Below, in pieces: positions 17,501 through 55,927 of a stretch of 56,485 nucleotides of DNA. The translations under genes and the position numbers were made by a program. The stretch spans positions 1 to 56,485 of IMG/VR virus record IMGVR_UViG_3300011440_000004. One strand, 5' to 3'. The notes below the pieces were generated by a model. It was not told where the DNA came from. It was given only the letters and a program-made list of their open reading frames with translations, and searched no databases. This stretch comes from a virus. Numbering within the stretch: position 1 is the stretch's first letter; each line of letters opens with the position of its first letter.

Positions 17501-18579
17501 CAGGTCGACCTTTCAAGTTGGACGATGAACTCGCCGGCTCGCCGGGAGGCGTTGCCGTCGAGATGAGCGTAGACGAACCCCGCGGCGGCCCGCCGCAAAC
17601 CTGCCGACGGGTCATCGTCGACGTAGGCGTCGAGGTCGATGGCACGCAGGGCGTCGGCGTCGTCGACCTGCCAGCCGGGGACGTGGCTCCAGAACCGCAG
17701 ACCATGTTCGACGTGGCGCCGATACCACGGTGCGTTGAGCGCCACGACCGGCCGGTCGAGGGCGGCCATCTCGTACATCAGCGATGTGTTGTCCGCGACG
17801 AGCACCGTGGCGTCGGCGAGGATGGCGTCCGCGTCGGCGACGACGTCGACGCCAGATCGAGCCCACACCGGCCCCAGGTGGCCCAGGAGACGAGGGTGGC
17901 CGTGGCCGACAACGTTCCACCCGGCCGCACGCCACGACGAACACAGGCCCCGCAGCGCCCATTCGTAGTGGCGCAGCGCCGATCCGGCCTCGGGGCACAA
18001 CGCGTTGGGCCAGTGGAACGTGACCGCGACCGATCTGTCGCCCCCAGCTCGGGCAGACGTGTCGCCGACCGGCAGGCGACACGTGTCGCTCGTCGACGAC
18101 GGTGACGCGTCGGATGTCACCACGGTGGACGCGTCGCGCACGACGTCGCCCGACGCGTCGTGTAGGACCTGGGCGAACCGGTCGAGCTTGGGGCATCCGA
18201 CCGCGACAGCCGCCACGCCCGGCCGGGCTCGACGCCACCGGTCGGCGACGGTCTCGGACGGGCAGACGTAGCCGACGACGCGCTCGGGATGGCGGGCGCC
18301 GCCACCCGAGTAGGCCTCGTGGTCGGCGCGGTCGACGTACACCTGGCCGGCGCCGTGCTCGACGTACACGAGCCGGCGGTGGTGAACGAGGCGGGCGACG
18401 TCTTGCCATGCGGCGACGACGGTGAGCCGGTCGGCGCGGTAGCGGTCTCGGGGGATGCGTTCACCCCAGCCGACGCCGTACGCCGAATAGAACTCGCCAC
18501 GGTCGGTCTCGGCGAGCGCGGCGTGGATCGGCGCGAGGTGCGCCGCGTAGTGCGGCATCGACGAGTAGAAGTCGATCAC
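17500..18579 (-). CDS. CDP-glycerol glycerophosphotransferase-like glycosyltransferase
   Basis: A 359-residue GT-B-like protein starting at GTG 18579 (GTGA overlap with the methyltransferase stop). The C-terminal half has VVGHGHPRLLGHLG, then ADATVLVADNTSLMYEMAAL and PVVALNAPWYRR, resembling the S-x-x-x-E donor site of CDP-glycerol glycerophosphotransferases and related enzymes. It could add glycerol-phosphate or sugar groups to virion protein, wall polymer or modified DNA; the acceptor cannot be read from sequence. It ends the modification cassette inside the head-tail gene block. Confidence 0.65.
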   Translation of the reverse strand: MIDFYSSMPHYAAHLAPIHAALAETDRGEFYSAYGVGWGERIPRDRYRADRLTVVAAWQDVARLVHHRRLVYVEHGAGQVYVDRADHEAYSGGGARHPERVVGYVCPSETVADRWRRARPGVAAVAVGCPKLDRFAQVLHDASGDVVRDASTVVTSDASPSSTSDTCRLPVGDTSARAGGDRSVAVTFHWPNALCPEAGSALRHYEWALRGLCSSWRAAGWNVVGHGHPRLLGHLGPVWARSGVDVVADADAILADATVLVADNTSLMYEMAALDRPVVALNAPWYRRHVEHGLRFWSHVPGWQVDDADALRAIDLDAYVDDDPSAGLRRAAAGFVYAHLDGNASRRAGEFIVQLERST

Positions 18580-19760
18580 CGGACGAGTTCGGTGAGCACG
18601 GCGCGCGCGACCGGGGGGCAGACGGCGTTGCCGATCAGACGCCACCGAGCTTCCTTGTTGCCGTGCAGTGCCGCCGGTGCGGCGGCGGGGAACGCCATCA
18701 GGATGCACCCCTGCTCCTCGGTGAGCGCGATCGGCTTGTCTGAGCCGGCCTCCTCAAACGGGACCGCGCCCGCTGATTGCGACCCGTCGTGATGGACGGG
18801 CGGCGATACGCGCGGGTCGGCACACACCGTCGTCGACGGGCGCGTGAGCGCCCACGACGCGTTCTCGGATCGAGTGAGGATCGTCGGCGCCGGTTCGCTC
18901 ATGTCTCGGGTCCCCGCCCGCGGTTGGTCGTTGGCGCTGAGAGACCAGCCCCACACGTTCTTACCCATCGCCGCGGCGGTGATCGTCGGGCACGGCCGCT
19001 CGTCGGGGTCGACCAGCGGCGCACCGTTCTGATGGCGGTCGAGCATCCATCGCCCTTCGCGCACGGCGGCGTCGACAGTGGCTCGCGCGCCCGACCCGCC
19101 GTCCATGCCGTGCCCCGACCCGGTCTCGGAATGGCCACGCAACGTCAGCGCAAGGCGATCGAGGAACCCCTTGCCGAGCGCTTCGGCCATCGACACCCAC
19201 GGCAGATGACCGAGCATGTCGGCGGGTTCGACCCGGGCGCGGCCCTTGCGGAACCGTTGATGCGTCAGCGGTGGCCGCATGACCGGACGGTCATGGTGGG
19301 CGAGCATGAACACCCGCAACCGGGTCTGCGGCACACCCATCGTCTCGGCCGAGACGGCGAACACTTCGGCGTGGTAGCCGACCTCACGCAGTCGGTGGGC
19401 TATCAACTCGTAGGCACCGCGGGCCTCGGGGACCTGCTCCAACGCCACCCACCGGGGTCGGGTCGCGAGCGCCCACACCAACGGCTGCCACACCAACTGG
19501 CCGCGCGGGTCGTCGAGACCTGCGCCCTTCCCGGCGCGCGACCACGACTGGCATGGCGGCGATCCGATCAGGCCGTCGATCCCAGCCCAATCCGACGGGT
19601 CGAGCGCGAGGATGTCGGCGCACGTCGTCGACCACCCCAACGCCTCGCGTGTCTTGGCGACGGCCGGTTCGTTGTCGATGCCGTGTTCGTCGATGCCGAG
19701 TTCGGCGCAGGCGAATCCCCATCCGATCCCGGAGAACAGATCGACGGCGTGGTCGGTCAC
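18576..19760 (-). CDS. DNA (cytosine-5) methyltransferase
   Basis: A 394-residue enzyme with all main C5-methyltransferase motifs in order: DLFSGIGWGFACAELG (motif I, SAM binding), GSPPCQSWSRAGK (motif IV, catalytic PCQ Cys), ALEQVPEA (motif VI, with EQV in place of ENV), GVPQTRLRVFMLAHHD (motif VIII, QxRxR) and IGNAVCPPVARA (motif X). The target-recognition region between VIII and X is about 150 residues. It should protect phage DNA from host restriction or mark it. The start is GTG 19760, overlapping the upstream stop. Confidence 0.9.
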   Translation of the reverse strand: MTDHAVDLFSGIGWGFACAELGIDEHGIDNEPAVAKTREALGWSTTCADILALDPSDWAGIDGLIGSPPCQSWSRAGKGAGLDDPRGQLVWQPLVWALATRPRWVALEQVPEARGAYELIAHRLREVGYHAEVFAVSAETMGVPQTRLRVFMLAHHDRPVMRPPLTHQRFRKGRARVEPADMLGHLPWVSMAEALGKGFLDRLALTLRGHSETGSGHGMDGGSGARATVDAAVREGRWMLDRHQNGAPLVDPDERPCPTITAAAMGKNVWGWSLSANDQPRAGTRDMSEPAPTILTRSENASWALTRPSTTVCADPRVSPPVHHDGSQSAGAVPFEEAGSDKPIALTEEQGCILMAFPAAAPAALHGNKEARWRLIGNAVCPPVARAVLTELVR

Positions 19761-19903
19761 AGCGGGACCGGGCAGTGTGTGGCGCAGCGCAGACAGACGA
19801 GCCTACGCCACCGGTCCCGCTGCGCAGTCGTCCAGTCGATGAGGGCGACCGACGGCCACCAACAGGTCTGGCATCGCAGACCGGACAGCTGCAGCGGGAT
19901 CAC
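19757..19903 (-). CDS. 48-residue zinc-ribbon protein
   Basis: Starts at GTG 19903 (GTGA overlap). The sequence has CQTC near residue 11 and CLRC near residue 37, spaced like a small zinc ribbon, followed by THCPVPL. It is one of a chain of three very short genes leading into the C5 methyltransferase. Function unknown. Confidence 0.6.
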   Translation of the reverse strand: MIPLQLSGLRCQTCWWPSVALIDWTTAQRDRWRRLVCLRCATHCPVPL

Positions 19904-20061
19904 GGCGTCGCCTTGTCGACGAGCCGCACGATGGCGGCCGACCACCCCTCCATGTCGGGGGTCCGGGCGAGGCGCAGCAGCTTGCGGAACTGGCGCTGCG
20001 TCATCACGACGGTGAGGCCGACGCGGTGGTCGTCGGCGTCGAGAACGACCGGCGCGGCCAT
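19900..20061 (-). CDS. 53-residue helical protein, unknown function
   Basis: ATG at 20061 overlaps the upstream stop (TGATG), and the stop overlaps the next GTG. The product MAAPVVLDADDHRVGLTVVM continues as a basic helix (TQRQFRKLLRLA) and a C-terminal WSAAIVRLVDKATP. GC-rich third positions and double overlap support coding. No family recognised. Confidence 0.55.
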   Translation of the reverse strand: MAAPVVLDADDHRVGLTVVMTQRQFRKLLRLARTPDMEGWSAAIVRLVDKATP

Positions 20062-20198
20062 CAGAGCGACAGCCGCTCGACGGGCACGTGGCGCTCACAC
20101 GAGAACCACTGCTTGGTCGGGGTGTTCGGTCCGGTCGCGGTGGTGATCCGGGTGGCCGGGTCGTCGCAGCCGGGATGGTCGCAGAGCACCGGCCGCAT
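20061..20198 (-). CDS. 45-residue zinc-finger-like protein
   Basis: MRPVLCDHPGCDDPATR and, 20 residues on, FSCERHVPVERLSL form a CxxxxC plus CxxH pattern, consistent with one zinc site. ATG at 20198 overlaps the leaderless gene's stop (TGATG), so it is translated by coupling from that message. Confidence 0.6.
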   Translation of the reverse strand: MRPVLCDHPGCDDPATRITTATGPNTPTKQWFSCERHVPVERLSL

Positions 20199-20464
20199 CA
20201 CTCGGCCTCGTCGTCGTGCTCGTCGAGCAGGTTCGCGACGTTGGCTGTGACGAACGTGCCGGCGTCGTCGTGCCAGTAGAGCAGGACGTCGGTGTGGTGG
20301 CCGTCGGAGAACGTGACACGCTCCAGCAGCCGGGTCGCGCCAGTGCGGTCATGCCATGCGGCCTTGGCCTCCGGGTCGTCGATATCGAGACCGACCGACT
20401 CCAGCCAGTCGTGCAGGTCGTTTTCGGTGTGGATCGCGGTGTCAGCGAGCGTGGTATCTGCCAT
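20198..20464 (-). CDS. 88-residue acidic protein, leaderless gene
   Basis: Begins ATGGCAGATACC at 20464 directly under promoter copy C. The product MADTTLADTAIHTENDLHDW is acidic, with a compact alpha/beta look (LLERVTFSDGHHTDVLLYWHD) and ends LLDEHDDEAE. It heads the mini-operon that leads through two tiny genes to the C5 methyltransferase. Function unknown. Confidence 0.7.
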   Translation of the reverse strand: MADTTLADTAIHTENDLHDWLESVGLDIDDPEAKAAWHDRTGATRLLERVTFSDGHHTDVLLYWHDDAGTFVTANVANLLDEHDDEAE

Positions 20465-20500
20465 GCCGACCATGGTACACAACCGGGGTTAGGTAGGCAA
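20453..20500 (-). promoter_or_regulatory. Leaderless promoter family, copy C
   Basis: Minus strand: -35 TTGCCT (20500-20495), 17-base spacer with AACCCCGGTT, -10 TACCAT (20477-20472), 7 bases, ATGGCAGATACC. The -35 is also the last codons of the upstream glycosyltransferase (ACC-TTG-CCT-ACC-TAA), so the promoter is embedded in a gene end. Confidence 0.8.
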
Positions 20501-23489: not shown

Positions 23490-23681
23490 CTACCCGTCGT
23501 CGCGCTGCAGGCGAGACGTGTCGTGTTCTGCCGGTGTGACACGACGCGTCTCGTCGACGAGGTCGTCGATGACGTCGGCGGCCTCGCGCATCGTCCACGG
23601 CCGATTGAAGTAGTTGCCGGCCTCGGCGCGCAGACGTGCCGCCATCGCCCGAGCTCGGCGGGTCAGCTGCCAGGGAGCCAC
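23490..23681 (-). CDS. Small helical protein, unknown function
   Basis: About 63 residues from GTG 23681 (overlapping the adaptor gene by 19 bases), or 51 from ATG 23645. It contains TRRARAMAARLRAEAGNYFN and MREAADVIDDLVDETRRV, two amphipathic helices. Neither start has a clear Shine-Dalgarno. It lies between head-tail adaptor and modification genes. Confidence 0.5.
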   Translation of the reverse strand: MAPWQLTRRARAMAARLRAEAGNYFNRPWTMREAADVIDDLVDETRRVTPAEHDTSRLQRDDG

Positions 23682-24436
23682 GTGTGGCGGCGTGACCGGC
23701 GCCCGGCCTGGCCGAGCGCGTACGGGTCGATCACCCGGCCGCCGCCTTGCGCTTCGGCCTTGGGCAGCGACGCCAGCCAGAGGTCTATCTCGGCGAGACC
23801 GGTCCAGCCCTCGCGGAACAGCGTCGACGAGATGACTTTCGAGACGCCCTGGCGAGAGATGGCCGTCGTGGTCGGCCCGGGCAGACGGCACGAGCCGGCG
23901 GTCGCGGGGCATGCCGCCTTGGCGAGTTCGAGACCGAGCGTCGCCGCCGATCTGACTCCGACGGTGTCGGGCACCTCACCCCACCGGTACGCCACCTCGA
24001 ACGTGTCCTCTTCGGTCGGTGGCCGCTCCATCCGCTGGCAGCACGGCCATGGGTCCTGGCCGCCGGGGTCGTCCTCGTCGGGGATGAACACGAGCCAGCG
24101 CCAGTCGTCGACGCGGTAGAAGGTGTCGGGGACGGCGACGCCGTCCATCAGGACTTCGGTCACGGTGATGACCGGGTAGCCGGTGAGGACGAACTCGGTG
24201 ACGCGTTGGCAGCCGGGCCGGCCGATCGAGCAGCCGCATTGGCCGCGTCCGGGGTTCGGCCGGTAGCGGTCGTCGACGATGCCGGACCATCGGGCGCCGG
24301 TGAGGTTGAACAGGATTTGCGACGCCGCGAGCAACGCCTCGTCGAGTTCCTCCGGGGCGATGGCTTTGACGGCGTCGTGGGCCTTGACGATCATCGGGTG
24401 GTCTCGGGTGGCCCACGGTCCGAGCAGCGACGTCAC
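23663..24436 (-). CDS. Head-tail adaptor-like protein
   Basis: A 257-residue protein from GTG 24436. APEELDEALLAASQILFNLTG near the N-terminus, then CSIGRPGCQRVTEFVLTGYPVITV and RVDDWRWLVF, form the pattern of phage head-tail connector proteins common in actinophages. A Cys-rich insert (QCGCSIGRPGC) may bind metal. It follows the major tail and J-domain genes rather than the capsid, an unusual order. Confidence 0.65.
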   Translation of the reverse strand: MTSLLGPWATRDHPMIVKAHDAVKAIAPEELDEALLAASQILFNLTGARWSGIVDDRYRPNPGRGQCGCSIGRPGCQRVTEFVLTGYPVITVTEVLMDGVAVPDTFYRVDDWRWLVFIPDEDDPGGQDPWPCCQRMERPPTEEDTFEVAYRWGEVPDTVGVRSAATLGLELAKAACPATAGSCRLPGPTTTAISRQGVSKVISSTLFREGWTGLAEIDLWLASLPKAEAQGGGRVIDPYALGQAGRRSRRHTWLPGS

Positions 24437-24451
24437 GGCGTCGAGGCTACC

Positions 24452-24709
24452 TCAGCCGGTGCCGACGATGCCGCCGAGCGACTGCGTCCAGAACGCGACG
24501 CAGTCGGCGACAGCACGATCGTGGCGGCCGACCGCGCCCGGTGCGCCGTTCTGCACGCCGCGCCACGCACGCCACACCTCGTTCTGGAGGGGCTTGGGCA
24601 GCTCGCGCCAGTGGCGTCGACACGCCAGGATCGAGAACGGCACAACCTGACCGCAGACCGGATGCGGGCAGGGGTGTTCGATCGGGTCGAGACCGGTGGT
24701 GTCAGTCAT
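24452..24709 (-). CDS. 85-residue zinc-site protein, unknown function
   Basis: ATG 24709 has GGAG nine bases upstream and overlaps the J-domain gene's stop as ATGA. CPHPVCGQVVPF and ACRRHWRELPK form a CxxxxC plus CxxxH arrangement. A helical C-terminus (LQNEVWRAWR .. VADCVAFW) follows. Such genes recur before head-tail adaptors in actinophages; function unknown. Confidence 0.6.
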   Translation of the reverse strand: MTDTTGLDPIEHPCPHPVCGQVVPFSILACRRHWRELPKPLQNEVWRAWRGVQNGAPGAVGRHDRAVADCVAFWTQSLGGIVGTG

Positions 24710-25356
24710 TGGGGAAACTCCTTGTCGAGGATGGCCTTGGCGTCGACGAGACGCTTGAACACTTCGGCGTCGCCACCGCGGTCGGGGTGATGCAGCTTGG
24801 CGGCGTCCTTGTAGAGCGCGAGGGCGAACGACGGGTCGTCGTCGGTCTCCGATGACCAGTCGACACCGCAGTGGTCCGAGATGTAGCGGGCGGCCTGCTC
24901 GACGGTCATCGACGCCGGCCCCACCGCGATGCCGGTGCCGATGGCTTTCCACCCGGTGTACTGCTGGCCGTCGCGAGCGATGCCGTACCGCTCGATGCGG
25001 CGCAGGTTCTCCAGCCCGAGAGCGACGGCGCGGACGTTGTCTTCCCACCAGTCGAACCGGTCGCAGACGTAGCGCTGCGGGCCGTGGCGCGACTCGAACA
25101 TCACGATGACGCCGGGCGAGCGGGGTCGGACGTCGGCGCGCAGACCACCGTCGAGACGCACGCCGCGTTCGTCGACGTCGACGCAGATGACTGCCTCGTC
25201 GGGGTCGGTGGGGTTCTGCAACTTGCGGACCTCGTCGAACAGCAGCTGGCGGGTGTTCGACCACGGCGCCTTGAACGGCGACCGGTACGGCAGGTCGGTC
25301 GGTTTCTGCGGCCACCCACCCGCGGGCCATGGCGAGTACACGATCCGCCAGCTCAC
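24706..25356 (-). CDS. J-domain (DnaJ-like) protein
   Basis: A 216-residue protein with an uncharacterised N-terminal domain (VSWRIVYSPWPAGGW .. DEVRKLQNPTDPDEAV) and a C-terminal J domain: ALALYKDAAKLHHPDRGGD with the diagnostic HPD, then VFKRLVDAKAILD. It probably recruits the host DnaK for assembly of a virion protein or replication complex. The J domain is at the C-terminus rather than the N-terminus. GTG 25356 overlaps the upstream stop. Confidence 0.8.
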   Translation of the reverse strand: MSWRIVYSPWPAGGWPQKPTDLPYRSPFKAPWSNTRQLLFDEVRKLQNPTDPDEAVICVDVDERGVRLDGGLRADVRPRSPGVIVMFESRHGPQRYVCDRFDWWEDNVRAVALGLENLRRIERYGIARDGQQYTGWKAIGTGIAVGPASMTVEQAARYISDHCGVDWSSETDDDPSFALALYKDAAKLHHPDRGGDAEVFKRLVDAKAILDKEFPQ

Positions 25357-25541
25357 GACGACACCCCGGTGCGGTAGCGGCGCAGCTCGTCCATGGCCCA
25401 CTCGTTCGAGTCGACGTCGACGAGGGTGACGCGCTGGCGGGCCTGCGAGAACGACGTCAGCACCGTGCGTTGCGGGCCCGACATCTCGACGAGGTGGACG
25501 CGCTCGGCCTCGGTGATGACACGGTCGGTGGGCACGCTCAC
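25353..25541 (-). CDS. 62-residue protein, unknown function
   Basis: GTG 25541 overlaps the stop of the leaderless gene (GTGA) and its own stop overlaps the J-domain start. The product VSVPTDRVITEAERVHLVEM, then QRTVLTSFSQARQRVTLVD, is a small alpha/beta protein with no motif I can name. Confidence 0.55.
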   Translation of the reverse strand: MSVPTDRVITEAERVHLVEMSGPQRTVLTSFSQARQRVTLVDVDSNEWAMDELRRYRTGVSS

Positions 25542-25732
25542 GGCGTCACCGTCCAGCCGCGGCGGCCACCGGCGCCGTAGGCCTTGTGTTGGCGCTCGCT
25601 GCACCACACGCATCGGCGGGTGTTGCACAGCACGTCGTCGACGTTGTCGAGACCGGTGCTCTCCCATGCGTGCGAGCGCCGACCGGGCGGCGCGTCGGTG
25701 TCGAGACAGGTGACGGTGGTGGTATCTGCCAT
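25538..25732 (-). CDS. 64-residue Cys-rich protein, leaderless gene
   Basis: Starts ATGGCAGATACC at 25732 under promoter copy D. CLDTDAPPGRRSHAW and CNTRRCVWCSERQHKAYG make a likely single zinc site. It heads the transcript carrying the J-domain and head-tail adaptor genes, right behind the terminator of the major tail gene. Function unknown. Confidence 0.7.
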   Translation of the reverse strand: MADTTTVTCLDTDAPPGRRSHAWESTGLDNVDDVLCNTRRCVWCSERQHKAYGAGGRRGWTVTP

Positions 25733-25768
25733 GCGACCAACGTACACAACCGAGGTTGGCGACAGCAA
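25721..25768 (-). promoter_or_regulatory. Leaderless promoter family, copy D
   Basis: Minus strand: -35 TTGCTG (25768-25763), 18-base spacer with AACCTCGGTT, -10 TACGTT (25744-25739), 6 bases, ATGGCAGATACC. It starts 8 bases after the end of the major-tail terminator stem, so one transcript ends and the next begins almost without gap. Confidence 0.8.
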
Positions 25769-25776
25769 GGGCGCGG

Positions 25777-25843
25777 GACGGCCCCGCCGCTACGACCGTC
25801 CGATTCTTGGCAGATACCGGTTGGAGGGAGCAGCGGGGCCGTC
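25777..25843 (-). terminator. Major tail gene terminator with antisense loop
   Basis: A 15-bp stem (14 paired, one mismatch) joins 25777-25791 and 25829-25843 around a 37-base loop, 80 bases after the major tail stop at 25924. As minus-strand RNA the loop contains GGUAUCUGCCA, the exact complement of UGGCAGAUACC shared by all seven leaderless start blocks. The RNA would be abundant if the tail gene is. Confidence 0.7.
25808..25818 (+). promoter_or_regulatory. Inverted copy of the leaderless start block
   Basis: Plus strand TGGCAGATACC, the same 11 bases as in the seven minus-strand start blocks but inverted and lying inside the terminator loop. There is no plus-strand gene or convincing plus-strand promoter beside it. 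A specified 11-mer would be expected about 0.03 times on both strands of a genome this size if bases were random. Confidence 0.75.
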
Positions 25844-25923: not shown

Positions 25924-26568
25924 TCAGCTGGCGATCGACGTGATGAACCCGCACGCCACCGCGGGCAGGGCGTCGTCGGGAATCCACTGCGCCACACGTG
26001 TCGACGCGACCGGGAAGTCGTTGGCCGGGCCGTCACCCCAGTTGGGGTTCTCGACGAGCTGGCCCGAGATGACGGTCAGGTGCGTGCCGTTCGCCATCTC
26101 CTTGTCGCCGATGCGGATGTTCTGCGCCTGCGGGAACGCCCAATGCGCGTACGGATAGTCGGGGTCGAGCGCACCATTCTTGACGCGCTTGGCCCACGCC
26201 TCGATCGACCAAATGTTGGTCTCGTCGACCGGGCCGAGCGCCGGGTAGCCGGCGCCGATCGCGGTGCCGGCGGTGAGCACGACACCGTCGGTGAGACCGG
26301 CGGTGATGTACGGGTCGGGCACGAGGAACGTGATCGAGAAGTCGAGACGCTTGAACGTGTCAGCCGACCGGAACTGCGACTCGACCTCGCCGCACGCGTT
26401 CTTGTCTTCGATCTCGTCGCCGTCGGTGTAGACCGCGGTCGTCGCGAGGGTCGTGAACGACTTGGTGACCAGGATGTTGTTGGCGCCGACGGCGGGGGCG
26501 CCACCGGCTGCGAGCCGGCCGAACCGCAGGCGGCACGTCTGGAGCTGCGGTACACAGTTGTCAGGCAT
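25924..26568 (-). CDS. Probable major tail protein
   Basis: A 214-residue beta-rich protein: MPDNCVPQLQTCRLRFGRLA, then NNILVTKSFTTLATTAVYTDGDEIEDKNACGE and later KRLDFSITFLVPDPYITAG and GVVLTAGTAIGAG. The length, the GDEIEDKNACG strand region and the C-terminal VAQWIPDDALPAVACGFIT fit siphovirus tail-tube subunits. A strong Shine-Dalgarno (GGAGGG, seven bases spacing) precedes ATG 26568, and a strong hairpin follows. Position relative to the adaptor gene is atypical, so the label is probable. Confidence 0.6.
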   Translation of the reverse strand: MPDNCVPQLQTCRLRFGRLAAGGAPAVGANNILVTKSFTTLATTAVYTDGDEIEDKNACGEVESQFRSADTFKRLDFSITFLVPDPYITAGLTDGVVLTAGTAIGAGYPALGPVDETNIWSIEAWAKRVKNGALDPDYPYAHWAFPQAQNIRIGDKEMANGTHLTVISGQLVENPNWGDGPANDFPVASTRVAQWIPDDALPAVACGFITSIAS

Positions 26569-26645: not shown

Positions 26646-26963
26646 TCATGGTGTGGCGAACACCGACGAGTTGACGGTGCGCGATATCTCGTCGGCGGCG
26701 AGCAGCCCTGCGGTGCCACGAGCCCGCGCCCACCACGTGCCGGCCTGGTCGAGCGCGGTCGGCTGCAGGTACTCCCACACTCCGACCGACGGGTTGGTGA
26801 TCGCGGCGTTGGGTGTCGACACCGCGGCCATCTCGACGCCGTCGGGTTTCTGCACCTGGAACGTCACCGCGGTCGGGTTGGTGAGCACGCCGGCGTCGTT
26901 GCGGAACGTCGCGACCCATATCACCTGGTCGCCGATGTCGAAGTCGCCGTCGCATGCGGTCAT
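26646..26963 (-). CDS. Small Ig-like virion protein
   Basis: A 105-residue beta-sandwich protein (GDQVIWVATFRNDAGVLTNP, TAVTFQVQKPDG, AGTWWARARGTAG), the pattern of small domains that decorate or join fibres in siphoviruses. ATG 26963 overlaps the fibre gene stop (ATGA). The 77-base gap after it carries the Shine-Dalgarno of the major tail gene but no promoter I trust. Confidence 0.6.
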   Translation of the reverse strand: MTACDGDFDIGDQVIWVATFRNDAGVLTNPTAVTFQVQKPDGVEMAAVSTPNAAITNPSVGVWEYLQPTALDQAGTWWARARGTAGLLAADEISRTVNSSVFATP

Positions 26964-29503
26964 GGCGCCCTGCGTGCGGTCAGGTCGACGGTGGCGGCGC
27001 GCATGGTGGCGAGCGTAGCGCTAGCGGCGGGTCGGGTCGTGAGGTCGGCGTCGTTCGCGACGCGCGTTGACAACACGACGTCGCCGATGACGTTGGGTGC
27101 GCCACCCGTCGTCGTGAGCGTGCCGGTGCCGGTGATCGTGCCGGCGAGACGCTTGAACACGGCGCGGCCGACCACGCCGAGCGTGGCGATGGTGCCGCCG
27201 GTGCGCTTGGCGGTGGCGCGCCGCACGAGACCGGTCGGGGTGATCGACCCGGCGAGGGTCAGCATGAACGTGAGCGAGCGCACCACGACACCAGTCGGTG
27301 TCACCTGGCCGGCGAGACGCTTGAACGTCGACCGCCGCACGAGACCGGCGGCGGCGGTGCTGCCGGCGAGACGCTTGCCGGTGGCTCGCACGACGCGGCC
27401 CGTCGCGGTGATCGTGCCGCCGATCGTGAGCAGGAACACGGTGCCGAAGTCGACACCGCCTGTCGGAGTGATCGACCCGCCGACCGTCTTGAACGCGGCG
27501 CGCACCACCCGCCCGGTCGCGGTGATCGAGCCCGCGAGCCGTTTCATGGATCCGCGTGCGACGCGTCCGGTGGCGGTGATCGTGCCGGCGAACGCCTTGG
27601 CGATGGTGAGGCGTGGGTCGCCGGCGGGCACGACGGAACCGGCGAGACCCTTGGTGGTGTGGCGCACCGCCCGCCCGGCCGGCGTCGATGTCCCGGCGAG
27701 GCGTTTGGTGGTGGCCCGGCGGATCACACCGGCGGGCGTCACAGTGCCCGCCAGCGTCAGCATGCGCAGCAGAGACGCCGCCAGGGTGCCAGACGCGGTG
27801 GACGAGCCCTGGAGCGTCTTAGCCGTGCGTCTGATGGCGGCCCCGGTCGCCGTCGACGACCCGAGCAGCCGTTTCGTCGAGCTGCGCACGACACGTCTGG
27901 TCGCGGTTACCGTCCCGGCGAGGGTGCGGAACTGCGTCTTGGCCCGCGTCAGGGCCCCGGTCGGTGTCGAGGTGCCGGCGACACGCTTGCCGGTGAGGCG
28001 ACGCACCACCCCGGTCCCGGTCGACGACCCGCCCCGCGTCTTGGCCGATGCCCGCACGACGCGGCCGGTGCCGGTGACCGACCCGGTCACCGTCTTGAAG
28101 TTCTCGACGGGCCCCCCGGCGACGGCTCGTAGCCGCACGAACAGCGCCGGCCCGCACTGGTTGGTGGTGGTCGTGAACGCCAGCGCGAGCGCCACGGTGC
28201 CGGTGCCGGCGGTGACCTTGGCCTCGAACAGTTCGATGTTGCCGTCGTCGCCGGTGCCGACACCGGCCCCCGACGTCAGCCGGGTCGTGGGCCCGAACGT
28301 GATGCCTGACGCTGTGATCGCGGGCGAGGTGATCGTCAGCGACGTGTCGGTGTCGACGGCGACGGCGACCACGACGACGTCGTCGACGGCGAGCGCGGTG
28401 TTGGTGGATGCGGTGATGGAGCGGTTGGCGCCGTGGGTGGCGTCGTCGCCGGTCGAAGTGGCGATGTCCCACGTGTCGGTCGGGTCGTCGAGCTGGTAAG
28501 CGACCATGATGCCGAGACAGCCCGGGGTGGTCCCGCCGGTCTGATCGAACGTGACCGACCCCGATTCGGTCCCGGCGACGGTGTCTTTTGAGTCGCCGCG
28601 AATCTCGGTCGTGTGGTTGTCTGCCGCGGTGCCGGTGCCACCGGCGAGACCGCCGAGTGACGTCCATCCCGTCTCGTTCGACATCACGATGTCGGATTCC
28701 CAGCCGACGCGGAAGGCGAAAATCTGATCGCCCGCTGCGAGGCCAGTCGGATAGGCGATGCTGACCGTGGTGGTCCCGCCCGCCGACTTCGCCCCGACCG
28801 CGACCCGGCTGACCGGCGGCAGGACGACGGTGCCGAGTGCGGGCACCGCGACCTGTGCGCCGACGCCCTCGTTGGCGGCAACCGAGACATCGGCCGTCTC
28901 GGTGACGGTGCCCGTCGCCGACGTCGTCAGATCCTTGGTCGAGAGCGAGCCACTCGCCGAGTCGTTGTCGAACCGGACCCGGTTCGTCCATCCGCCCGTC
29001 GTCGACGTGAACCCACCGAACGGGGTCTTGGCGGCGAACATCGCGACGCCGAGGCATTCGTCGTACGGCGGCGTGAGCGTGATGGCATCGACGCCGGTGC
29101 CTGCCGAACCGTCGAACGTCAGCGTGTAGTCGACGCCAGCGGTTGCGCCGAGGCCGGTCCAGATCGGAGCGTCGACGTCGAACGTCCCCGCCTCGACCCG
29201 ACAGATGGCTCCAACGCGCTCACCGCCATCGTTCATCGTCCACGCGAACGACGGCGACGCCGATGGTGCGATGAGCGTGTAGATGCCGGCGACCGGGCTG
29301 TTGCCGATGATGATTTCCGCGACGGTCACCCACGGCGACGGCGGCGTCAGATCAGCGACTGACCCGAAGAACCCGCCGTGATTCAACACCAACGCGATGA
29401 GACCGTCGCCGGTCGCCACCGACGCCGGTGCGGTGACCGTGAACGTGGTCGAGCCACTGAACTCGGCGTCAGCTGAGGCCGACCCGAAGGTGGGGACGGC
29501 CAC
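26960..29503 (-). CDS. Large fibre-like protein with 18 tandem 18-residue repeats
   Basis: An 847-residue protein. Residues 1-455 contain two or more related beta domains (FTVTAPASVATGDGLIALVL; VSIAYPTGLAAGDQIFAFRV). From about residue 468 to 795 there are 18 repeats of the type KRLAGSITATGRVVRAAx: basic start, LAG, Ser/Thr-rich turn, TG, then V-x-R. Repeats 3, 6, 12 and 15 end in a linker two residues longer and hydrophobic (for example SLTFMLTLAG), a period of three units. A solenoid or elongated trimeric stalk is likely. It lies between capsid and tail genes and may be a head or tail fibre. Confidence 0.7.
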   Translation of the reverse strand: MAVPTFGSASADAEFSGSTTFTVTAPASVATGDGLIALVLNHGGFFGSVADLTPPSPWVTVAEIIIGNSPVAGIYTLIAPSASPSFAWTMNDGGERVGAICRVEAGTFDVDAPIWTGLGATAGVDYTLTFDGSAGTGVDAITLTPPYDECLGVAMFAAKTPFGGFTSTTGGWTNRVRFDNDSASGSLSTKDLTTSATGTVTETADVSVAANEGVGAQVAVPALGTVVLPPVSRVAVGAKSAGGTTTVSIAYPTGLAAGDQIFAFRVGWESDIVMSNETGWTSLGGLAGGTGTAADNHTTEIRGDSKDTVAGTESGSVTFDQTGGTTPGCLGIMVAYQLDDPTDTWDIATSTGDDATHGANRSITASTNTALAVDDVVVVAVAVDTDTSLTITSPAITASGITFGPTTRLTSGAGVGTGDDGNIELFEAKVTAGTGTVALALAFTTTTNQCGPALFVRLRAVAGGPVENFKTVTGSVTGTGRVVRASAKTRGGSSTGTGVVRRLTGKRVAGTSTPTGALTRAKTQFRTLAGTVTATRRVVRSSTKRLLGSSTATGAAIRRTAKTLQGSSTASGTLAASLLRMLTLAGTVTPAGVIRRATTKRLAGTSTPAGRAVRHTTKGLAGSVVPAGDPRLTIAKAFAGTITATGRVARGSMKRLAGSITATGRVVRAAFKTVGGSITPTGGVDFGTVFLLTIGGTITATGRVVRATGKRLAGSTAAAGLVRRSTFKRLAGQVTPTGVVVRSLTFMLTLAGSITPTGLVRRATAKRTGGTIATLGVVGRAVFKRLAGTITGTGTLTTTGGAPNVIGDVVLSTRVANDADLTTRPAASATLATMRAATVDLTARRAP

Positions 29504-29506
29504 GGC

Positions 29507-30802
29507 TCAGGGCTCGATCGTGACGTTGTCCCAGTGCCAGGTGTACCGACAGCCGGTCAGCGAGCCGACCTGCCGACACGCTTCGCCATCCTTGTCGGGC
29601 GTGTAGGAGTGCTGCTCCAGGATGACGCGGGCGTCGGTCGGGAAGTGGCCGGGGAACGTCTGCGAGAACGTGCCGTTGACGCCTTGGTCGATCGTGACCG
29701 TGACCGTGTCGTTGGCGTTCGCGGTGATGCAGTGCTGCCGGCGGATCGCACGCGACTCCTGGCCTTGGACGTCTCGGTCCCACTGATACCCGGAGTTCGT
29801 GAACCGGGGCCCGTTGGCGAACACGTTGAGACCCCAGTACTGGCCGTGGACCATCACACCCCATGTGGTGGCGTCGTGCTGCTTGGTCTTGTCGTCGACA
29901 CCGACGAACTCGGGGTTGACGTGGGTCAGGTCACCGTCGGCGACCTTCGCCGCGGGGACGACGACCACCTCGGTCCACTGGCGGCCACCCTGCTCGGTGA
30001 CGTTCTGATCCCAGCAGACGCGGCCGATGGTGGGGAACGTCTGGCGGGGTGACATCGACAGTGTCGAGTAGCCGTCGACGTCGCCCATCGACGTCATCAT
30101 GTGGGCGTTGCCGACGCCGCCGTCGGTGCCGCACCGGTAGAAGTGCTGCGACCGGTCGCCGTGGGCGTCGATGGTTCGGAAGGTGTCGGCGGTGCCGCAT
30201 GCGACGTCGTGGTCGGCGCGCCACGTGTTCGTGCCGACCGGGCTGGGCGGGGTGTCGGCGTCGGCGCGGTGGTGGACGTCGAGGTCCCAGCGGGCCCGCC
30301 AGTTCTCGCCGTCGGTGTAGGTCTCGACGAACGAACCACCACCGGGCACCGTCGTCGTCGTTGACGTGGTCGAGGTGGTGGTCGTCGACGTCGTGCTCGT
30401 GGTCGACGTCGTTGAGGTGGTCGAGCTCGTCGACGTGGACGTAGCGGGGACCGTCGTGGTGGTGGCCGCAGTCGTGGACGTCGACGAGCTCGTGGTGGTG
30501 GTCGACGTGGGCGGGCCGGGCAGCACGTGCAGGATGCGGCCGGCGAGCAGCGTCGACGAGATGGTGGTGCCGTTCTGGCGTGCGAGTTCGTTGCCGGTCA
30601 GGTTGTACCGGTTCGCTATCCCGATCCACGAGTCGTTCGCGACGACGCGGTAGTGGATCACGGCCGGCACCTCGTCGGCGAGCGCCGACCGGGCCGGCAC
30701 CGATCGAGACACGACCGGCGGCACGAACACGGCGGCGCCGATACCGGCACCGAACAGCAGGCCGATGGCGAGGGCCCCCTTGCGGCGGGACATCGGGGTC
30801 AT
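29507..30802 (-). CDS. Secreted LysM protein with Ser/Thr-rich stalk and lectin-like domain
   Basis: A 431-residue protein. MTPMSRRKGALAIGLLFGAG plus the following hydrophobic run is a signal peptide or anchor; residues about 47-92 are a LysM peptidoglycan-binding domain (HYRVVANDSWIGIANRYNL .. AGRILHVLPG); residues about 97-150 are almost only Ser and Thr; the C-terminal 275 residues are a beta sandwich resembling concanavalin-like lectin/glucanase folds (CWDQNVTEQGGRQWTEVVVV .. YTWHWDNVTIEP). Either the virion carries it to bind the wall, or it is exported to the infected cell surface. No glycosidase catalytic motif is evident. Confidence 0.7.
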   Translation of the reverse strand: MTPMSRRKGALAIGLLFGAGIGAAVFVPPVVSRSVPARSALADEVPAVIHYRVVANDSWIGIANRYNLTGNELARQNGTTISSTLLAGRILHVLPGPPTSTTTTSSSTSTTAATTTTVPATSTSTSSTTSTTSTTSTTSTTTTSTTSTTTTVPGGGSFVETYTDGENWRARWDLDVHHRADADTPPSPVGTNTWRADHDVACGTADTFRTIDAHGDRSQHFYRCGTDGGVGNAHMMTSMGDVDGYSTLSMSPRQTFPTIGRVCWDQNVTEQGGRQWTEVVVVPAAKVADGDLTHVNPEFVGVDDKTKQHDATTWGVMVHGQYWGLNVFANGPRFTNSGYQWDRDVQGQESRAIRRQHCITANANDTVTVTIDQGVNGTFSQTFPGHFPTDARVILEQHSYTPDKDGEACRQVGSLTGCRYTWHWDNVTIEP

Positions 30803-30803
30803 G

Positions 30804-31532
30804 TCAGCCGCCGGACGGCAGGGTCAGCTCGTAGGTGGTCTGCAGCGAGTCACCGTTCGTCGAGTCGAGGTTCACCGCGGAGAACACCGACCGGTCGAGC
30901 AACACGCCCTGGCCGACGTCGACGTCGGAGAAGATGCCGTGCTCGGTGACCGCGATCGTGCCACCCGAGTCGGGGGTCAGGGTGGCGACGGTGCGATAGA
31001 TGTTCGCCGACGCACCCTCGGTCGTGGTGCCGGTCGGGCGGGTCGAGTTCGTCACGTACTGCGTCGTCAGCTCGGTGACGAGCGCGGTGTCGCCGGCGGC
31101 CTCGGCGGTGGTGCCGGTGCCGTACCCGTGATATTTCATCTCCTCCAACTCGACGATGTTCTGGAAGGCGTCGACGATGTAGCCGACTCCGACCGTGGTG
31201 ACGACTCGCAGCGAGGCGAGACCCAGCGGCACGACGGTGCCGTCGCCGCGGCGCACCGCGAGGTACAGCGCGCCGTAGAACGTCGACAGGTTGAGCTTGT
31301 CGGCGAGCTTGACGCGGCGGATGCCGCGCCACAGGTTCGGCAGGTTCCGCAGACGCCAGTCGTTCACCTCTGGCGACACCTCCGACGAGGGGAGACCGAA
31401 CCGGGAGATGACACGCCGGTCGGTGTTCGGCGGGTACTCGACGAACGGGCGGGGACCGAGGCGGTCGCCTCGGATCACGTGCAGACCGAGAGACCCGGTC
31501 GGAGCAATCACACCTTCGGTGGCTGGCGGCAT
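30804..31532 (-). CDS. Virion structural protein next to capsid genes
   Basis: A 242-residue protein. The C-terminal half (MKYHGYGTGTTAEAAGDTAL, ASANIYRTVATLTPDSGG, AVTEHGIFSDVDVGQGVLLD) is a pattern found in many siphovirus structural genes close to the capsid gene, role unassigned. No Shine-Dalgarno precedes ATG 31532; instead a -10-like TACGTT (31544-31539) lies six bases upstream, so it may be leaderless. Confidence 0.6.
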   Translation of the reverse strand: MPPATEGVIAPTGSLGLHVIRGDRLGPRPFVEYPPNTDRRVISRFGLPSSEVSPEVNDWRLRNLPNLWRGIRRVKLADKLNLSTFYGALYLAVRRGDGTVVPLGLASLRVVTTVGVGYIVDAFQNIVELEEMKYHGYGTGTTAEAAGDTALVTELTTQYVTNSTRPTGTTTEGASANIYRTVATLTPDSGGTIAVTEHGIFSDVDVGQGVLLDRSVFSAVNLDSTNGDSLQTTYELTLPSGG

Positions 31533-36065: not shown

Positions 36066-36099
36066 GGCGACCGAGCGTAGTGCTATGCGCCCGGACGCG

Positions 36100-36133
36100 A
36101 CAGCGCCACCCGAACGGGTCCGGGTGGCGCTGT
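36100..36133 (-). terminator. Strong hairpin after the LPXTG gene
   Basis: ACAGCGCCACCCG (36100-36112) pairs perfectly over 13 bp with CGGGTGGCGCTGT (36121-36133), loop of 8 bases. It lies between the LPXTG gene and the protease gene and would stop read-through into the capsid genes. Confidence 0.8.
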
Positions 36134-36184
36134 CTTCGATGCCGCAGTCGGTTGTCGTCCCTCGCGGCCTCGGGAAGTCGGGGG

Positions 36185-36886
36185 TCAGGCTACACGCCGG
36201 CGCCGGGCGATGCGCAAGATGGCGACGCCACCGAGCACGAGCGCGACGGCGATGCCGGCGTTGCGTCTGGCGTCGGAGCGGGCCCCGGTCGCGGGCAGCG
36301 TGCCCGCCACGGTGGTTTCGACGATCGCCGCTGTGGTGGTGGGCTCGTCGCAGCAGCCGACCGGTTCACACCCGCCGGTCTCATTCGTGACGCCGGTCGT
36401 ACAGATCGTGGTCGTCGGATCGGCGCCCACGGTCGTCGTGGTGGCGGCGGGCGCCGTGGTGGTGGTCGCAGGGACCGTTGTGGCCGTGGTGGTCGTGGCG
36501 GGCACCGTGGTGGTCGTGGTCTGGACCGGGCAGACCGGCGGGCGGGCGACCGTCGCCGAGTTCGACCCGGTCGCCTGATTCGACCAGGCGGCCGACACGG
36601 TCTCGGTGGCCGACGCCTGCGTGCCGGGGTAGGTGACCGTGCGGGTGAACGCCAGGTCGTCGCCCTGCGATCCGGCCGGCGCATACCCGGCCGGCGACGT
36701 GATGCGCCAGGTGAGGTCTCGATCGACGTCGGCGCGGGCGGTCCACGTGACCGACCACGTGTCGACGCGGCACTGCGTGGCGCCGGCGACGACCGGGTGA
36801 TGCGCGAGCGCCGGGGCGGCGGGGATCAGGCCGACGCCCGCCGCGATGGCGGCGCAAGCGATGACGATGCGTGTGCGGTGTCTCAT
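36185..36886 (-). CDS. LPXTG cell-wall-anchored surface protein
   Basis: A 233-residue protein with every element of a sortase substrate: signal peptide (MRHRTRIVIACAAIAAGVGL .. APALA), an exported beta domain (about 31-118, two Cys), a Thr-rich stalk (TTTTTVPATTTT, about 122-160), a Cys-rich patch (CTTGVTNETGGCEPVGCC), LPATG at 197-201, a hydrophobic segment (AGIAVALVLGGVAILRI) and a basic tail (ARRRRVA). Host sortase would attach it to peptidoglycan of the infected cell. ATG 36886 has AAGGG nine bases upstream. It is bounded downstream by a strong terminator. Exclusion of competing phages or altered cell surface is possible; function unproven. Confidence 0.85.
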   Translation of the reverse strand: MRHRTRIVIACAAIAAGVGLIPAAPALAHHPVVAGATQCRVDTWSVTWTARADVDRDLTWRITSPAGYAPAGSQGDDLAFTRTVTYPGTQASATETVSAAWSNQATGSNSATVARPPVCPVQTTTTTVPATTTTATTVPATTTTAPAATTTTVGADPTTTICTTGVTNETGGCEPVGCCDEPTTTAAIVETTVAGTLPATGARSDARRNAGIAVALVLGGVAILRIARRRRVA

Positions 36887-36938
36887 TGATGGTGTCCCTT
36901 CGGGTTGTCCGACCGCGGTGGTGCGGTCGGAGACTAGA

Positions 36939-37273
36939 TCACGCGGGATTGACCGCGGAGAGCCATGCGTCGACGGTCCACGCGATGGCGAGGGTGTCGT
37001 CGGGCCCGAGCACGACGGGTTCGAGTGGCCAGTCGAACTTGGTCGGGCCGGCGTTGGCGAGCAGCACAAGACGCATCGCGGTGTAGCGGGCGGCGTCGGT
37101 GGAGTTGTGGCGGAAGTGGAACACCGGGTAGCCGTCGGAGCCTTGGCCCCAGTCGTGGGCGTGGGTCTCGACCGCGCGCTGGGGTCGCCCTGTTCGAACG
37201 TGCCGACGATGACGACCTCGGCGAACTCGCACGGCATCGTGAACGTGCGGGCCTTGGTGAGACGCTCAGCCAT
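36939..37273 (-). pseudogene. Small phage protein gene split by a one-base frameshift
   Basis: The frame from ATG 37273 encodes MAERLTKARTFTMPCEFAEV, then VIVGTFEQGD, after which coding sense jumps to another frame: QRAVETHAHDWGQGSDGYPV and onward to DAWLSAVNPA (stop 36939). The switch lies at a run of four C on the minus strand (about 37181-37184); one extra C would restore a continuous gene of about 111 residues. Sequencing error, a real mutation or slippage at the C run are all possible. The protein itself has no recognised family. Confidence 0.6.
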
Positions 37274-37592
37274 CGACGTACCCGCCGTCGACGACGACAC
37301 GCATGCGCAACCATCGGCGAGAGATTGGCGCCACGCCGGCGAGCATCACGGTGAGGTCGTCCTCGATCGCACGGCACGCCGCGGCGGCGTCGCCCGACCA
37401 CTGGTCGACGGCGTCGATGGTGAGACCGGACCGGCACACGACGACGGGCTCGTAGCCCTCGCCGACGGCCAACGCTGAGCGAGTGTCGCGCACGACCTTC
37501 CACGTGTACCGGAACGTCCAGAGACGCGGCGACTGGCGCGGCATGCGCGCCGCCAGGTGAGGCGGGAGCTCGGGCGGCGGCATGTCAGCCAT
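37266..37592 (-). CDS. Structural-region protein, unknown function
   Basis: A 108-residue protein from ATG 37592 (TGATG overlap); ATG 37598 is an alternative two codons earlier. It reads MADMPPPELPPHLAARMPRQ, then LWTFRYTWKVVRDTRSALA and ends RMRVVVDGGYVDG. The compact alpha/beta look does not match a family I can name. It is part of the run between the Rmf-like gene and the LPXTG gene. Confidence 0.55.
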   Translation of the reverse strand: MADMPPPELPPHLAARMPRQSPRLWTFRYTWKVVRDTRSALAVGEGYEPVVVCRSGLTIDAVDQWSGDAAAACRAIEDDLTVMLAGVAPISRRWLRMRVVVDGGYVDG

Positions 37593-37798
37593 CACCATGC
37601 TCCGACGAGGTCGGCGGCGGGTGAGGTCTCGCCGACGTCGACGACGCGGGCGGGCAGCGACGCGATGGCCTCGACCATGGCGCGAGCCATGCGCGTGTGG
37701 AGTTCGTCGCGCACCCGCCACCCGGCGACGAGTTCGGTGTCGAGCACGTCGACGGGCAGGGTCGAGTCGACCACGATCAGACCGCGGTGCACGGCCAT
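37592..37798 (-). CDS. 68-residue protein, unknown function
   Basis: MAVHRGLIVVDSTLPVDVLD followed by a helix (RDELHTRMARAMVEAIASL). ATG 37798 overlaps the upstream stop as TGATG, and its stop overlaps the next ATG. Co-translated with its neighbours. No motif recognised. Confidence 0.55.
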   Translation of the reverse strand: MAVHRGLIVVDSTLPVDVLDTELVAGWRVRDELHTRMARAMVEAIASLPARVVDVGETSPAADLVGAW

Positions 37799-38067
37799 CA
37801 CGCGACCGCCGCGGGCCGGTGCAGCACGAGCGGGTCGTGGATGTTGGTGCGCCACGCGGTGACGTTGACACCGCGGTACGGGTGCCACGTGACCGACCGG
37901 AACGACAGCGAGTCGTCGGCGAACCGGGCGATGGTGACGAGCGGCGTGTCGGGGCCGACCCACGACTTGGCGACCGCGACCGCGGTCAGCTCGGTGGTGC
38001 GGGTCTCTCGGGTGCGGGTGTCGTTGGGTCGGGTCGTGGTGGTGACCTCGACGGCGTAGGTGGTCAT
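37798..38067 (-). CDS. 89-residue beta-rich protein, unknown function
   Basis: MTTYAVEVTTTTRPNDTRTR leads into ELTAVAVAKSWVGPDTPLVT and SFRSVTWHPYRGVNVTAWR. Start 38067 carries the cassette GGAGGCACCGCA-ATG and overlaps the upstream stop (ATGA). The product is probably a small cytoplasmic beta protein; function unknown. Confidence 0.6.
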   Translation of the reverse strand: MTTYAVEVTTTTRPNDTRTRETRTTELTAVAVAKSWVGPDTPLVTIARFADDSLSFRSVTWHPYRGVNVTAWRTNIHDPLVLHRPAAVA

Positions 38068-38309: not shown

Positions 38310-38464
38310 TTGACGACCTCGGCCTTGGCGGCGATCCATCCGGCGCGGGCGGACTCGTCGCCCCATGGGCACGACTCGCCACGCTCGAACGCGGCGTACC
38401 CGGCGAGCCATGCGGAGTTGTTGACGAGGGTCGGGGACGTCTTGCGTGTTGCGGTATCTGCCAT
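38306..38464 (-). CDS. Rmf/CrpP-like 52-residue protein, leaderless gene
   Basis: ATGGCAGATACC at 38464 starts MADTATRKTSPTLVNNSAWL; then GYAAFERGESCPWGDESARA and GWIAAKAEVVK. The spacing GY-x(6)-G-x(2)-CPW-x(5)-R-x(2)-W closely follows ribosome modulation factor and the related CrpP proteins (GY-x-A-x-x-G .. CPY .. R-x-x-W). In the host such a protein could bind ribosomes; here this is inferred from a short alignment made by eye. Too short for most gene finders. It heads the operon leading to the LPXTG gene. Confidence 0.6.
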   Translation of the reverse strand: MADTATRKTSPTLVNNSAWLAGYAAFERGESCPWGDESARAGWIAAKAEVVK

Positions 38465-38500
38465 GGCCGAGACGATACACAACCGGGGTTAGGAACGCAA
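38453..38500 (-). promoter_or_regulatory. Leaderless promoter family, copy E
   Basis: Minus strand: -35 TTGCGT (38500-38495), 17-base spacer with AACCCCGGTT, -10 TATCGT (38477-38472), 7 bases, ATGGCAGATACC. The upstream gene stops at 38503, two bases before the -35. Confidence 0.8.
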
Positions 38501-51221: not shown

Positions 51222-51415
51222 CAGTGCCACGATCCGAACGTGACGAGCGGCATGTAGGACGTGCGGCCGTGGACCTTGCCGAACGCCACGAACTTGCCGT
51301 CGGTCATCTCGTACGCGGTGAGCGTGGAGCGCACGATGGTGCCGTGGTCGGTGACCGTGCCAGCCGCGAGGGTGCCTGGTGTCGCGTCGGTGAACTGCGT
51401 GTGGGTATCTGCCAT
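51221..51415 (-). CDS. 64-residue protein, leaderless gene
   Basis: Starts ATGGCAGATACC at 51415 under promoter copy F. MADTHTQFTDATPGTLAAGT, then VRSTLTAYEMTDGKFVAFGK and SYMPLVTFGSWH, a small beta-rich protein. It heads the transcript leading to the SprT-like and ASCH genes. Function unknown. Confidence 0.7.
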   Translation of the reverse strand: MADTHTQFTDATPGTLAAGTVTDHGTIVRSTLTAYEMTDGKFVAFGKVHGRTSYMPLVTFGSWH

Positions 51416-51450
51416 ACCCGAATCGTACACAACCGGGGTTAGCTAGGCAA
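51404..51450 (-). promoter_or_regulatory. Leaderless promoter family, copy F
   Basis: Minus strand: -35 TTGCCT (51450-51445), 17-base spacer with AACCCCGGTT, -10 TACGAT (51427-51422), 6 bases, ATGGCAGATACC. The -35 lies within the last codons of the ParB-methyltransferase gene (stop at 51439). Confidence 0.8.
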
Positions 51451-55496: not shown

Positions 55497-55891
55497 GACG
55501 GCGGCTCGCACAGTTCTGGACCGTCGAGGTCGGCGACCTTCATCGCGTCGGCGCCGGTGAACAACACGCAGCGATACTCGGGGCGCGGTGTCCACCCGGT
55601 CGGGAACGGCTGCCCGGAGACCTGACCGCCGGGGTTGCATCCGAGCATCCCGGCGACGATGGCGGCCTGCCCCATGTTGCCCGCGGGGACGATGCAGATG
55701 CCGAGGAACCCACCGCCGCCAGGCACCTGCTTGTCGGGCGGGTCGCTGCGGTCGGTGTCGACGAACGACAGCCACCACCATCCGTCGATGGGCTGAGCCA
55801 TGCACAGTTCGACCCGGCGGTGCCATTCGGCGTCGCCGGGCACGCATGGCCCGAGGTCGGAGAAGTCGAGATGATCGTCGGTATCTGCCAT
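55493..55891 (-). CDS. 132-residue protein, leaderless gene
   Basis: Starts ATGGCAGATACC at 55891 under promoter copy G. MADTDDHLDFSDLGPCVPGD, then LCMAQPIDGWWWLSFVDTDR and FLGICIVPAGNMGQAAIVAG. Two conserved Cys and a WWW patch; the style resembles small phage proteins that bind carbohydrate or nucleotides, but I cannot assign it. It precedes RusA in the same transcript. Confidence 0.7.
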   Translation of the reverse strand: MADTDDHLDFSDLGPCVPGDAEWHRRVELCMAQPIDGWWWLSFVDTDRSDPPDKQVPGGGGFLGICIVPAGNMGQAAIVAGMLGCNPGGQVSGQPFPTGWTPRPEYRCVLFTGADAMKVADLDGPELCEPPS

Positions 55892-55927
55892 GCGCAGATC
55901 GTACCTAACCGGGGTTTACGACAGCAA
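55880..55927 (-). promoter_or_regulatory. Leaderless promoter family, copy G
   Basis: Minus strand: -35 TTGCTG (55927-55922), 18-base spacer with AACCCCGGTT, -10 TACGAT (55903-55898), 6 bases, ATGGCAGATACC. It drives the RusA, HNH and ParB-methyltransferase transcript. Confidence 0.8.

What the first reader, a model, noticed from the sequence alone, without database searches (positions are those of the whole stretch)
25777..25843. Major-tail terminator loop is antisense to every leaderless start in the genome
Seen: the terminator stem (25777-25791 with 25829-25843) encloses a 37-base loop. As minus-strand RNA the loop contains GGUAUCUGCCA, a perfect 11-nt complement of UGGCAGAUACC, the block at the first codons of the six ATG-started leaderless genes and of the GTG at 4953. 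The block occurs inverted here with no gene or plus-strand promoter to explain it. Inference: when the tail gene is strongly transcribed late, its 3' hairpin (whole or as a processed fragment) could pair with the 5' ends of leaderless messages and shut off or stabilise them. I know of no described phage system built this way.
Basis: partly seen in the sequence, partly recalled or inferred. Interest (0 to 1): 0.9.

Follow-up and report, generated by a model that had tools for sequence, protein, structure and literature searches.

The report
Tail-gene hairpin carrying inverted start block
In a 56-kb virus record from an actinobacterial phage, the RNA hairpin after the major tail gene holds the exact mirror copy of a short sequence found at seven promoters; the hairpin itself is ordinary for this phage family, but a similar mirror copy in a hairpin loop also turns up in unrelated mycobacteriophages, so a phage antisense RNA is worth testing.

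Summary
The sequence facts hold. TGGCAGATACC occurs eight times (0.005-0.035 expected). Seven copies lie just downstream of one promoter type; the eighth is inverted, in the loop of the strongest hairpin of its length sampled on the minus strand. Corrections: the loop is not open (most of the anti-block sits in an inner stem); the GTG at 4953 is probably not a start (Shine-Dalgarno plus ATG at 4921); there is no U-tract; and the nearest block is 76 nt downstream in cis. The hairpin is a family feature: nearly all of 45 homologue clusters have a strong hairpin right after the major tail gene, with unrelated loops, and close relatives (44-49% identity) lack the block. Here the promoter plus small leaderless gene sit in DNA that relatives lack, inserted between the tail gene and the adaptor gene. 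The block behaves like cluster K start-associated sequences (SAS), which also have one unexplained inverted copy. I found that this copy lies in the apical loop of a covarying hairpin on the SAS-sense strand, although SAS persists in 11 of 17 genomes without a close match to it. Antisense control is not excluded, but not shown. Most likely: an ordinary tail-gene 3' hairpin with a lineage-specific extra copy of a SAS-like block.

The parts
25777..25843 (-). Hairpin between the major tail gene and the next promoter: 15-pair stem, 37-nt loop with an inner stem; on family evidence the 3' hairpin of the major tail gene
   Evidence: fold -47.1 kcal/mol, z -5.2; lowest energy of sampled minus-strand windows; hairpin at the same place in relatives
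25808..25818 (+). Orphan inverted copy of the start block (TGGCAGATACC); as minus-strand RNA GGUAUCUGCCA
   Evidence: exact match; expectation 0.004-0.011 with promoters masked
25721..25731 (-). Nearest start block, codons 1-4 of the next leaderless gene, 76 nt downstream of the orphan copy
25733..25768 (-). Promoter of the next unit: TTGC -35, spacer dyad AACCTCGGTT, -10 TACGTT, gap of 6 nt to ATG
25538..25732 (-). Small leaderless gene (64 aa, MADTTTVTCL...), no PHROGs match
25924..26568 (-). Major tail protein gene (214 aa), upstream of the hairpin
   Evidence: phrog_792, 1.1e-16; 44-49% identity to IMG/VR relatives
23663..24436 (-). Homologue of the gene that directly follows the tail gene in IMG/VR relatives (the gene at that place is annotated head-to-tail adaptor in reference phages)
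24437..25776 (-). Segment absent from relatives between tail gene and adaptor gene (promoter, 64-aa gene, phrog_9210 gene): moron-like insertion
   Evidence: relatives have about 30-85 bp between the two genes; phrog_9210
1829..1878 (-). Promoter plus start block before an IstB/DnaC-like ATPase gene (1238-1840)
4942..4988 (-). Promoter plus block inside a 5' leader; gene start is probably ATG 4921 with GAAAGG upstream
20453..20500 (-). Promoter plus start block of an 88-aa leaderless gene, in a segment absent from relatives
38453..38500 (-). Promoter plus start block of a 52-aa leaderless gene, in a segment absent from relatives
51404..51450 (-). Promoter plus start block of a 64-aa leaderless gene
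55880..55927 (-). Promoter plus start block of a 132-aa leaderless gene

Best explanation
The hairpin is the ordinary 3' hairpin of the major tail gene of this phage family. It probably lowers read-through into the following genes or protects the 3' end of the abundant tail mRNA (inferred from position). The start block belongs to a SAS-like regulatory element: a sigma-70-type promoter with a dyad in its spacer and an invariant 11-bp block at about +2 to +12, read as DNA operator or RNA 5' end by an unknown phage factor (inferred). In this phage a unit with such a promoter was inserted behind the tail hairpin. The inverted block in the loop is a lineage-specific extra copy that the hairpin does not need for its basic function; at most it adds a local second site or weak pairing. 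Shown: the hairpin, its family-wide position, the seven promoters, the insertion, and the absence of the block in relatives. Not shown: any effect on expression.
For: After the major tail stop, 20 of 30 homologues have a stem scoring 13 or more within 60 nt, against 11 of 268 other genes; 41 of 52 beat every shuffle over 120 nt; a strong hairpin is seen in nearly all of 45 non-redundant clusters, with unrelated loops. Five named phages (DSL-LC01, Sixama, Pumpernickel, Phendrix, Atuin) have it too. In close relatives the adaptor gene follows the hairpin directly, without the inserted unit, and the block is absent at up to one mismatch from seven relative records. Relatives G002, G004 and L025 have promoters with the same dyad core AACCnnGGTT, some leaderless, but no block. 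The block persists at 4942-4952 where it is not a start codon, so it is not there only for coding.
Against: An exact 11-mer with expectation about 0.01 in the loop of the strongest hairpin, 76 nt from a true copy, is hard to call pure accident. Identity ends exactly at the 11-mer, as expected for a functional element rather than a duplication scar. Cluster K phages show a comparable arrangement in a covarying hairpin.
Confidence: 0.6

Rival explanations
1. Antisense regulator: the tail-gene 3' hairpin, whole or processed, exposes GGUAUCUGCCA (seed GCCA in the apical loop) and pairs with the 5' ends of the seven block transcripts, blocking initiation on leaderless mRNAs late in infection. In cis it could also lock the next start on read-through RNA.
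For: 11-12 bp complementarity to all seven, duplex -20.6 to -23.4 against about 8.4 kcal/mol to open. The stem is complete only as minus-strand RNA, the strand of the targets. Cluster K phages have an orphan anti-SAS in the apical loop of a hairpin with 7 of 17 pairs changed on both sides; CTCC and CCC of that loop are invariant in 10 sequences.
Against: Most of the anti-block is paired in the inner stem; cofolding of hairpin and target keeps the hairpin and forms no duplex (that program cannot model a loop-to-target pairing inside an intact stem). The match stops at the A of AUG. Relatives keep the hairpin without any block. In cluster K, SAS is constant in 17 genomes while only 6 keep a close inverted copy. 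No RNA data.
Confidence: 0.2
2. DNA site: the block is bound by a phage DNA-binding protein; the orphan copy is a second, inverted site 87 bp (centre to centre) from the site at the 25732 promoter, allowing a repression loop or roadblock, as with stoperators.
For: Asymmetric, invariant, almost all in one orientation, retained where it is not a start codon. The base before the block varies (A, G, T), as for a protein site. The orphan copy is at the one such promoter that follows a long intergenic gap.
Against: No second copy with up to two mismatches near the other six promoters; no repressor identified; relatives keep the dyad but not the block.
Confidence: 0.13
3. Scar or accident: the copy is a decayed inverted duplicate from movement of promoter units, or chance.
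For: The adjacent segment is an insertion.
Against: No flanking identity to any of the seven promoters beyond the 11-mer.
Confidence: 0.12

Closest known systems
[quoted passage not shown]
   Same: Short asymmetric block repeated at gene starts in one orientation; seven promoters with an inverted repeat in Adephagia, seven here; a single copy in the opposite orientation not tied to a gene start; function unknown.
   Different: SAS is GGGATAGGAGCCC with a Shine-Dalgarno core, 3-9 bp upstream of start codons, mainly outside the structural module. Here the block is TGGCAGATACC, inside codons 1-4 of leaderless genes, with some units inserted among structural genes.
Stoperators of cluster A mycobacteriophages (PMC3029335)
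   Same: Asymmetric sites of 11-13 bp scattered through the genome, mostly in one orientation.
   Different: Stoperators number 24 in L5 and 34 in Bxb1, lie mainly between genes, and are bound by a known repressor; here there are 8, all but one at promoters, and no repressor is known.
Hairpin after the major tail gene in related actinobacteriophages (L024-L030, DSL-LC01, Sixama, Phendrix, Atuin)
   Same: Strong hairpin shortly after the major tail stop codon.
   Different: Here it lies 80 nt after the stop, has a 37-nt loop with an inner stem, carries the anti-block, and is followed by a promoter.
Morons (usage as in PMC6316719)
   Same: Unit with its own promoter between structural genes that are adjacent in relatives.
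   Different: No separate terminator of its own was shown.

Membership tests
Cluster K SAS/ESAS | Short asymmetric block repeated at gene starts in one orientation | tested here: met
   7 of 8 copies just downstream of the promoter of minus-strand transcripts, 6 of them at start codons
Cluster K SAS/ESAS | Consensus GGGATAGGAGCCC with AGGAG core upstream of the start codon | tested here: not met
   block is TGGCAGATACC, at or within the start codons
Cluster K SAS/ESAS | Promoter with an inverted repeat beside the block (ESAS) | tested here: met
   -35, spacer dyad AACCnnGGTT and -10 at all seven; a functional parallel, the sequence differs
Cluster K SAS/ESAS | Single inverted orphan copy | tested here: met
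   25808-25818; in cluster K found in 6 of 17 genomes at up to one mismatch
Stoperator system | Bound by a phage repressor that blocks elongation | not testable with these tools
   no repressor identified in the ORFs scanned
Intrinsic terminator | G+C-rich stem followed by a U-run | tested here: not met
   strong stem but CCGCGCCCTTGC follows; not listed by the terminator scan, whose loops are limited to 3-8 nt
Moron | Own promoter, inserted between genes adjacent in relatives | tested here: met
Moron | Own terminator | tested here: inconclusive
   no hairpin assigned to the end of the inserted unit
Antisense small RNA from a 3' UTR | Complementarity to target 5' ends | tested here: met
Antisense small RNA from a 3' UTR | Stable RNA and effect on targets | not testable with these tools
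   needs RNA data
Antisense small RNA from a 3' UTR | Loop and target block change together in relatives | tested here: inconclusive
   relatives lack both block and anti-block; no phage sharing the block was found

The most novel reading that the evidence does not exclude
Two unrelated groups of actinobacteriophages have independently built the same circuit: a repeated start-associated block marks a set of small genes, and one inverted copy, displayed in a hairpin loop on the same RNA strand, serves as a shared antisense regulator of the set.
Probability: 0.18. Interest if true: 0.85.

Novelty: new variant of a known kind. Interest (0 to 1): 0.5.

Why it matters
SAS have had no known function since they were described in 2011. 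This window adds an unrelated phage with the same layout at leaderless starts, and the comparison shows that in cluster K the unexplained inverted SAS sits in the loop of a conserved, covarying hairpin. That turns an old puzzle into a concrete test: delete or change the loop and measure the block genes.

Tried and rejected
Near relatives by DNA, by promoter pattern in IMG/VR and GTDB, and by single tail or terminase proteins: none, or unrelated chance hits. A plus-strand leaderless gene at TTG 25807: no promoter, and no coding signal in that frame. Duplication scar: no flanking identity. GGTATC in hairpin loops of distant relatives (3 clusters against about 1 expected): not taken as homology, because close relatives lack it. 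Rfam: no match in the window at gathering scores and only an implausible weak one nearby, and none above gathering in the cluster K hairpin region. One search failed on pattern syntax.

Full report
The observation. The window is a 56,485-base virus record with nearly all genes on the minus strand. TGGCAGATACC occurs eight times exactly. Seven copies are on the minus strand, each just behind one promoter type: TTGC, a spacer with the dyad AACCnnGGTT, a -10 of the form TANNNT, a short gap, then RTGGCAGATACC. The eighth is on the plus strand at 25808-25818, in the loop of hairpin 25777-25843. Markov models expect 0.005-0.035 copies in all, and 0.004-0.011 with the promoters masked. The excess is real; the one extra copy is unlikely but not impossible by chance, and it was picked after the fact.

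The hairpin. As minus-strand RNA it folds at -47.1 kcal/mol, z -5.2, and no other sampled 67-nt minus-strand window is lower. The fold shows an inner stem, so only GCCA of the anti-block is in the apical loop, plus one bulged A. Freeing the 11 nt costs about 8.4 kcal/mol, while pairing with the seven 5' ends gives -20.6 to -23.4; pairing is possible, but cofolding keeps the hairpin. There is no U-run.

Where the hairpin comes from. The gene upstream encodes a major tail protein (phrog_792). Relatives in IMG/VR share 44-49% of its residues. In most of them a strong hairpin follows the tail stop codon, with unrelated loops, and the adaptor gene starts soon after without room for a promoter. Over the family, 20 of 30 tail genes have a stem scoring 13 or more within 60 nt, against 11 of 268 other genes; 41 of 52 beat all shuffles; nearly all of 45 clusters show it, as do five named phages. 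The hairpin is therefore a family feature. It is probably an attenuator or 3' protector rather than a full terminator, since in relatives the next gene must be reached through it (inference).

What is special here. Between hairpin and adaptor gene this phage has an extra segment (24437-25776) with the promoter, a 64-aa leaderless gene and a phrog_9210 gene. The promoters at 20464 and 38464 also lead segments that relatives lack. These look like morons with a common promoter. The block is absent from seven relative records at up to one mismatch. Some relatives carry several promoters with the same dyad core and another start region, some leaderless. At 4942-4952 the block is in a leader rather than at a start: the coding frame begins at ATG 4921 after GAAAGG. 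The block is thus conserved for a reason other than coding.

Comparison with known systems. Cluster K mycobacteriophages have SAS, 13-bp blocks at gene starts in one orientation; Pope et al. [quoted passage not shown] Some SAS come with ESAS, now read as SigA-like promoters with an inverted repeat, seven in Adephagia (PMC11373665). The layout matches this window. I located the inverted SAS in Adephagia and Anaya: it lies between genes 92/93 (Adephagia) and 96/97 (Anaya), in the loop of a hairpin on the strand of the SAS transcripts. In ten related sequences this hairpin keeps 96.5% of pairs, with 7 of 17 pairs changed on both sides and no shuffle in 500 reaching that; the loop keeps CTCC and CCC. 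Yet all 17 cluster K genomes searched have 12-18 SAS, while only 6 keep the inverted copy within one mismatch. So the antisense match is not needed for SAS to persist. Some records annotate an ORF over this region, so its non-coding status is not certain. The ten sequences were chosen because they align well, so the covariation figures describe that subset.

Verdict. The safest reading is an ordinary tail-gene hairpin with a lineage-specific inverted copy of a SAS-like block. An antisense role is open at about 0.2, strengthened by the cluster K parallel and weakened by the lack of testable covariation and by the inner stem. No RNA data were available.

Noticed in passing
L111 about 46661-46713 (Adephagia JF704105 about 58660-58712); L112 about 47850-47900 (Anaya): The single inverted SAS of cluster K phages lies in the apical loop of a hairpin with covarying outer stem, on the SAS-sense strand, after a strong terminator-like hairpin; the papers read do not mention this.
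   Followed up: yes
L104, L105, L108, L109, L025 (IMG/VR relatives): Several promoters per record with GTAGAC -35 and dyad CTAACCCGGGTTAG overlapping the -10; same AACCnnGGTT core as the window, some leaderless.
   Followed up: partly
L009 2098-2136: An unrelated phage contig (56% G+C) has the same operator-like ACAACCCCGGTTGT in a leaderless promoter before a 91-aa ORF, with a similar promoter on the other strand at about 1 kb distance.
   Followed up: no
window 18577-20494, 36069-38500, 24437-25776: Three promoter-led segments absent from relatives between structural genes; one carries a C5 DNA methylase.
   Followed up: partly
window 26646-31532: About 5 kb between two conserved structural genes that are about 1.1 kb apart in L026, without a block promoter.
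   Followed up: no
L037, L051, L053 tail-gene hairpins: GGTATC in the inner 5' arm of the hairpin, as in the window; 3 of 45 clusters against about 1 expected.
   Followed up: partly
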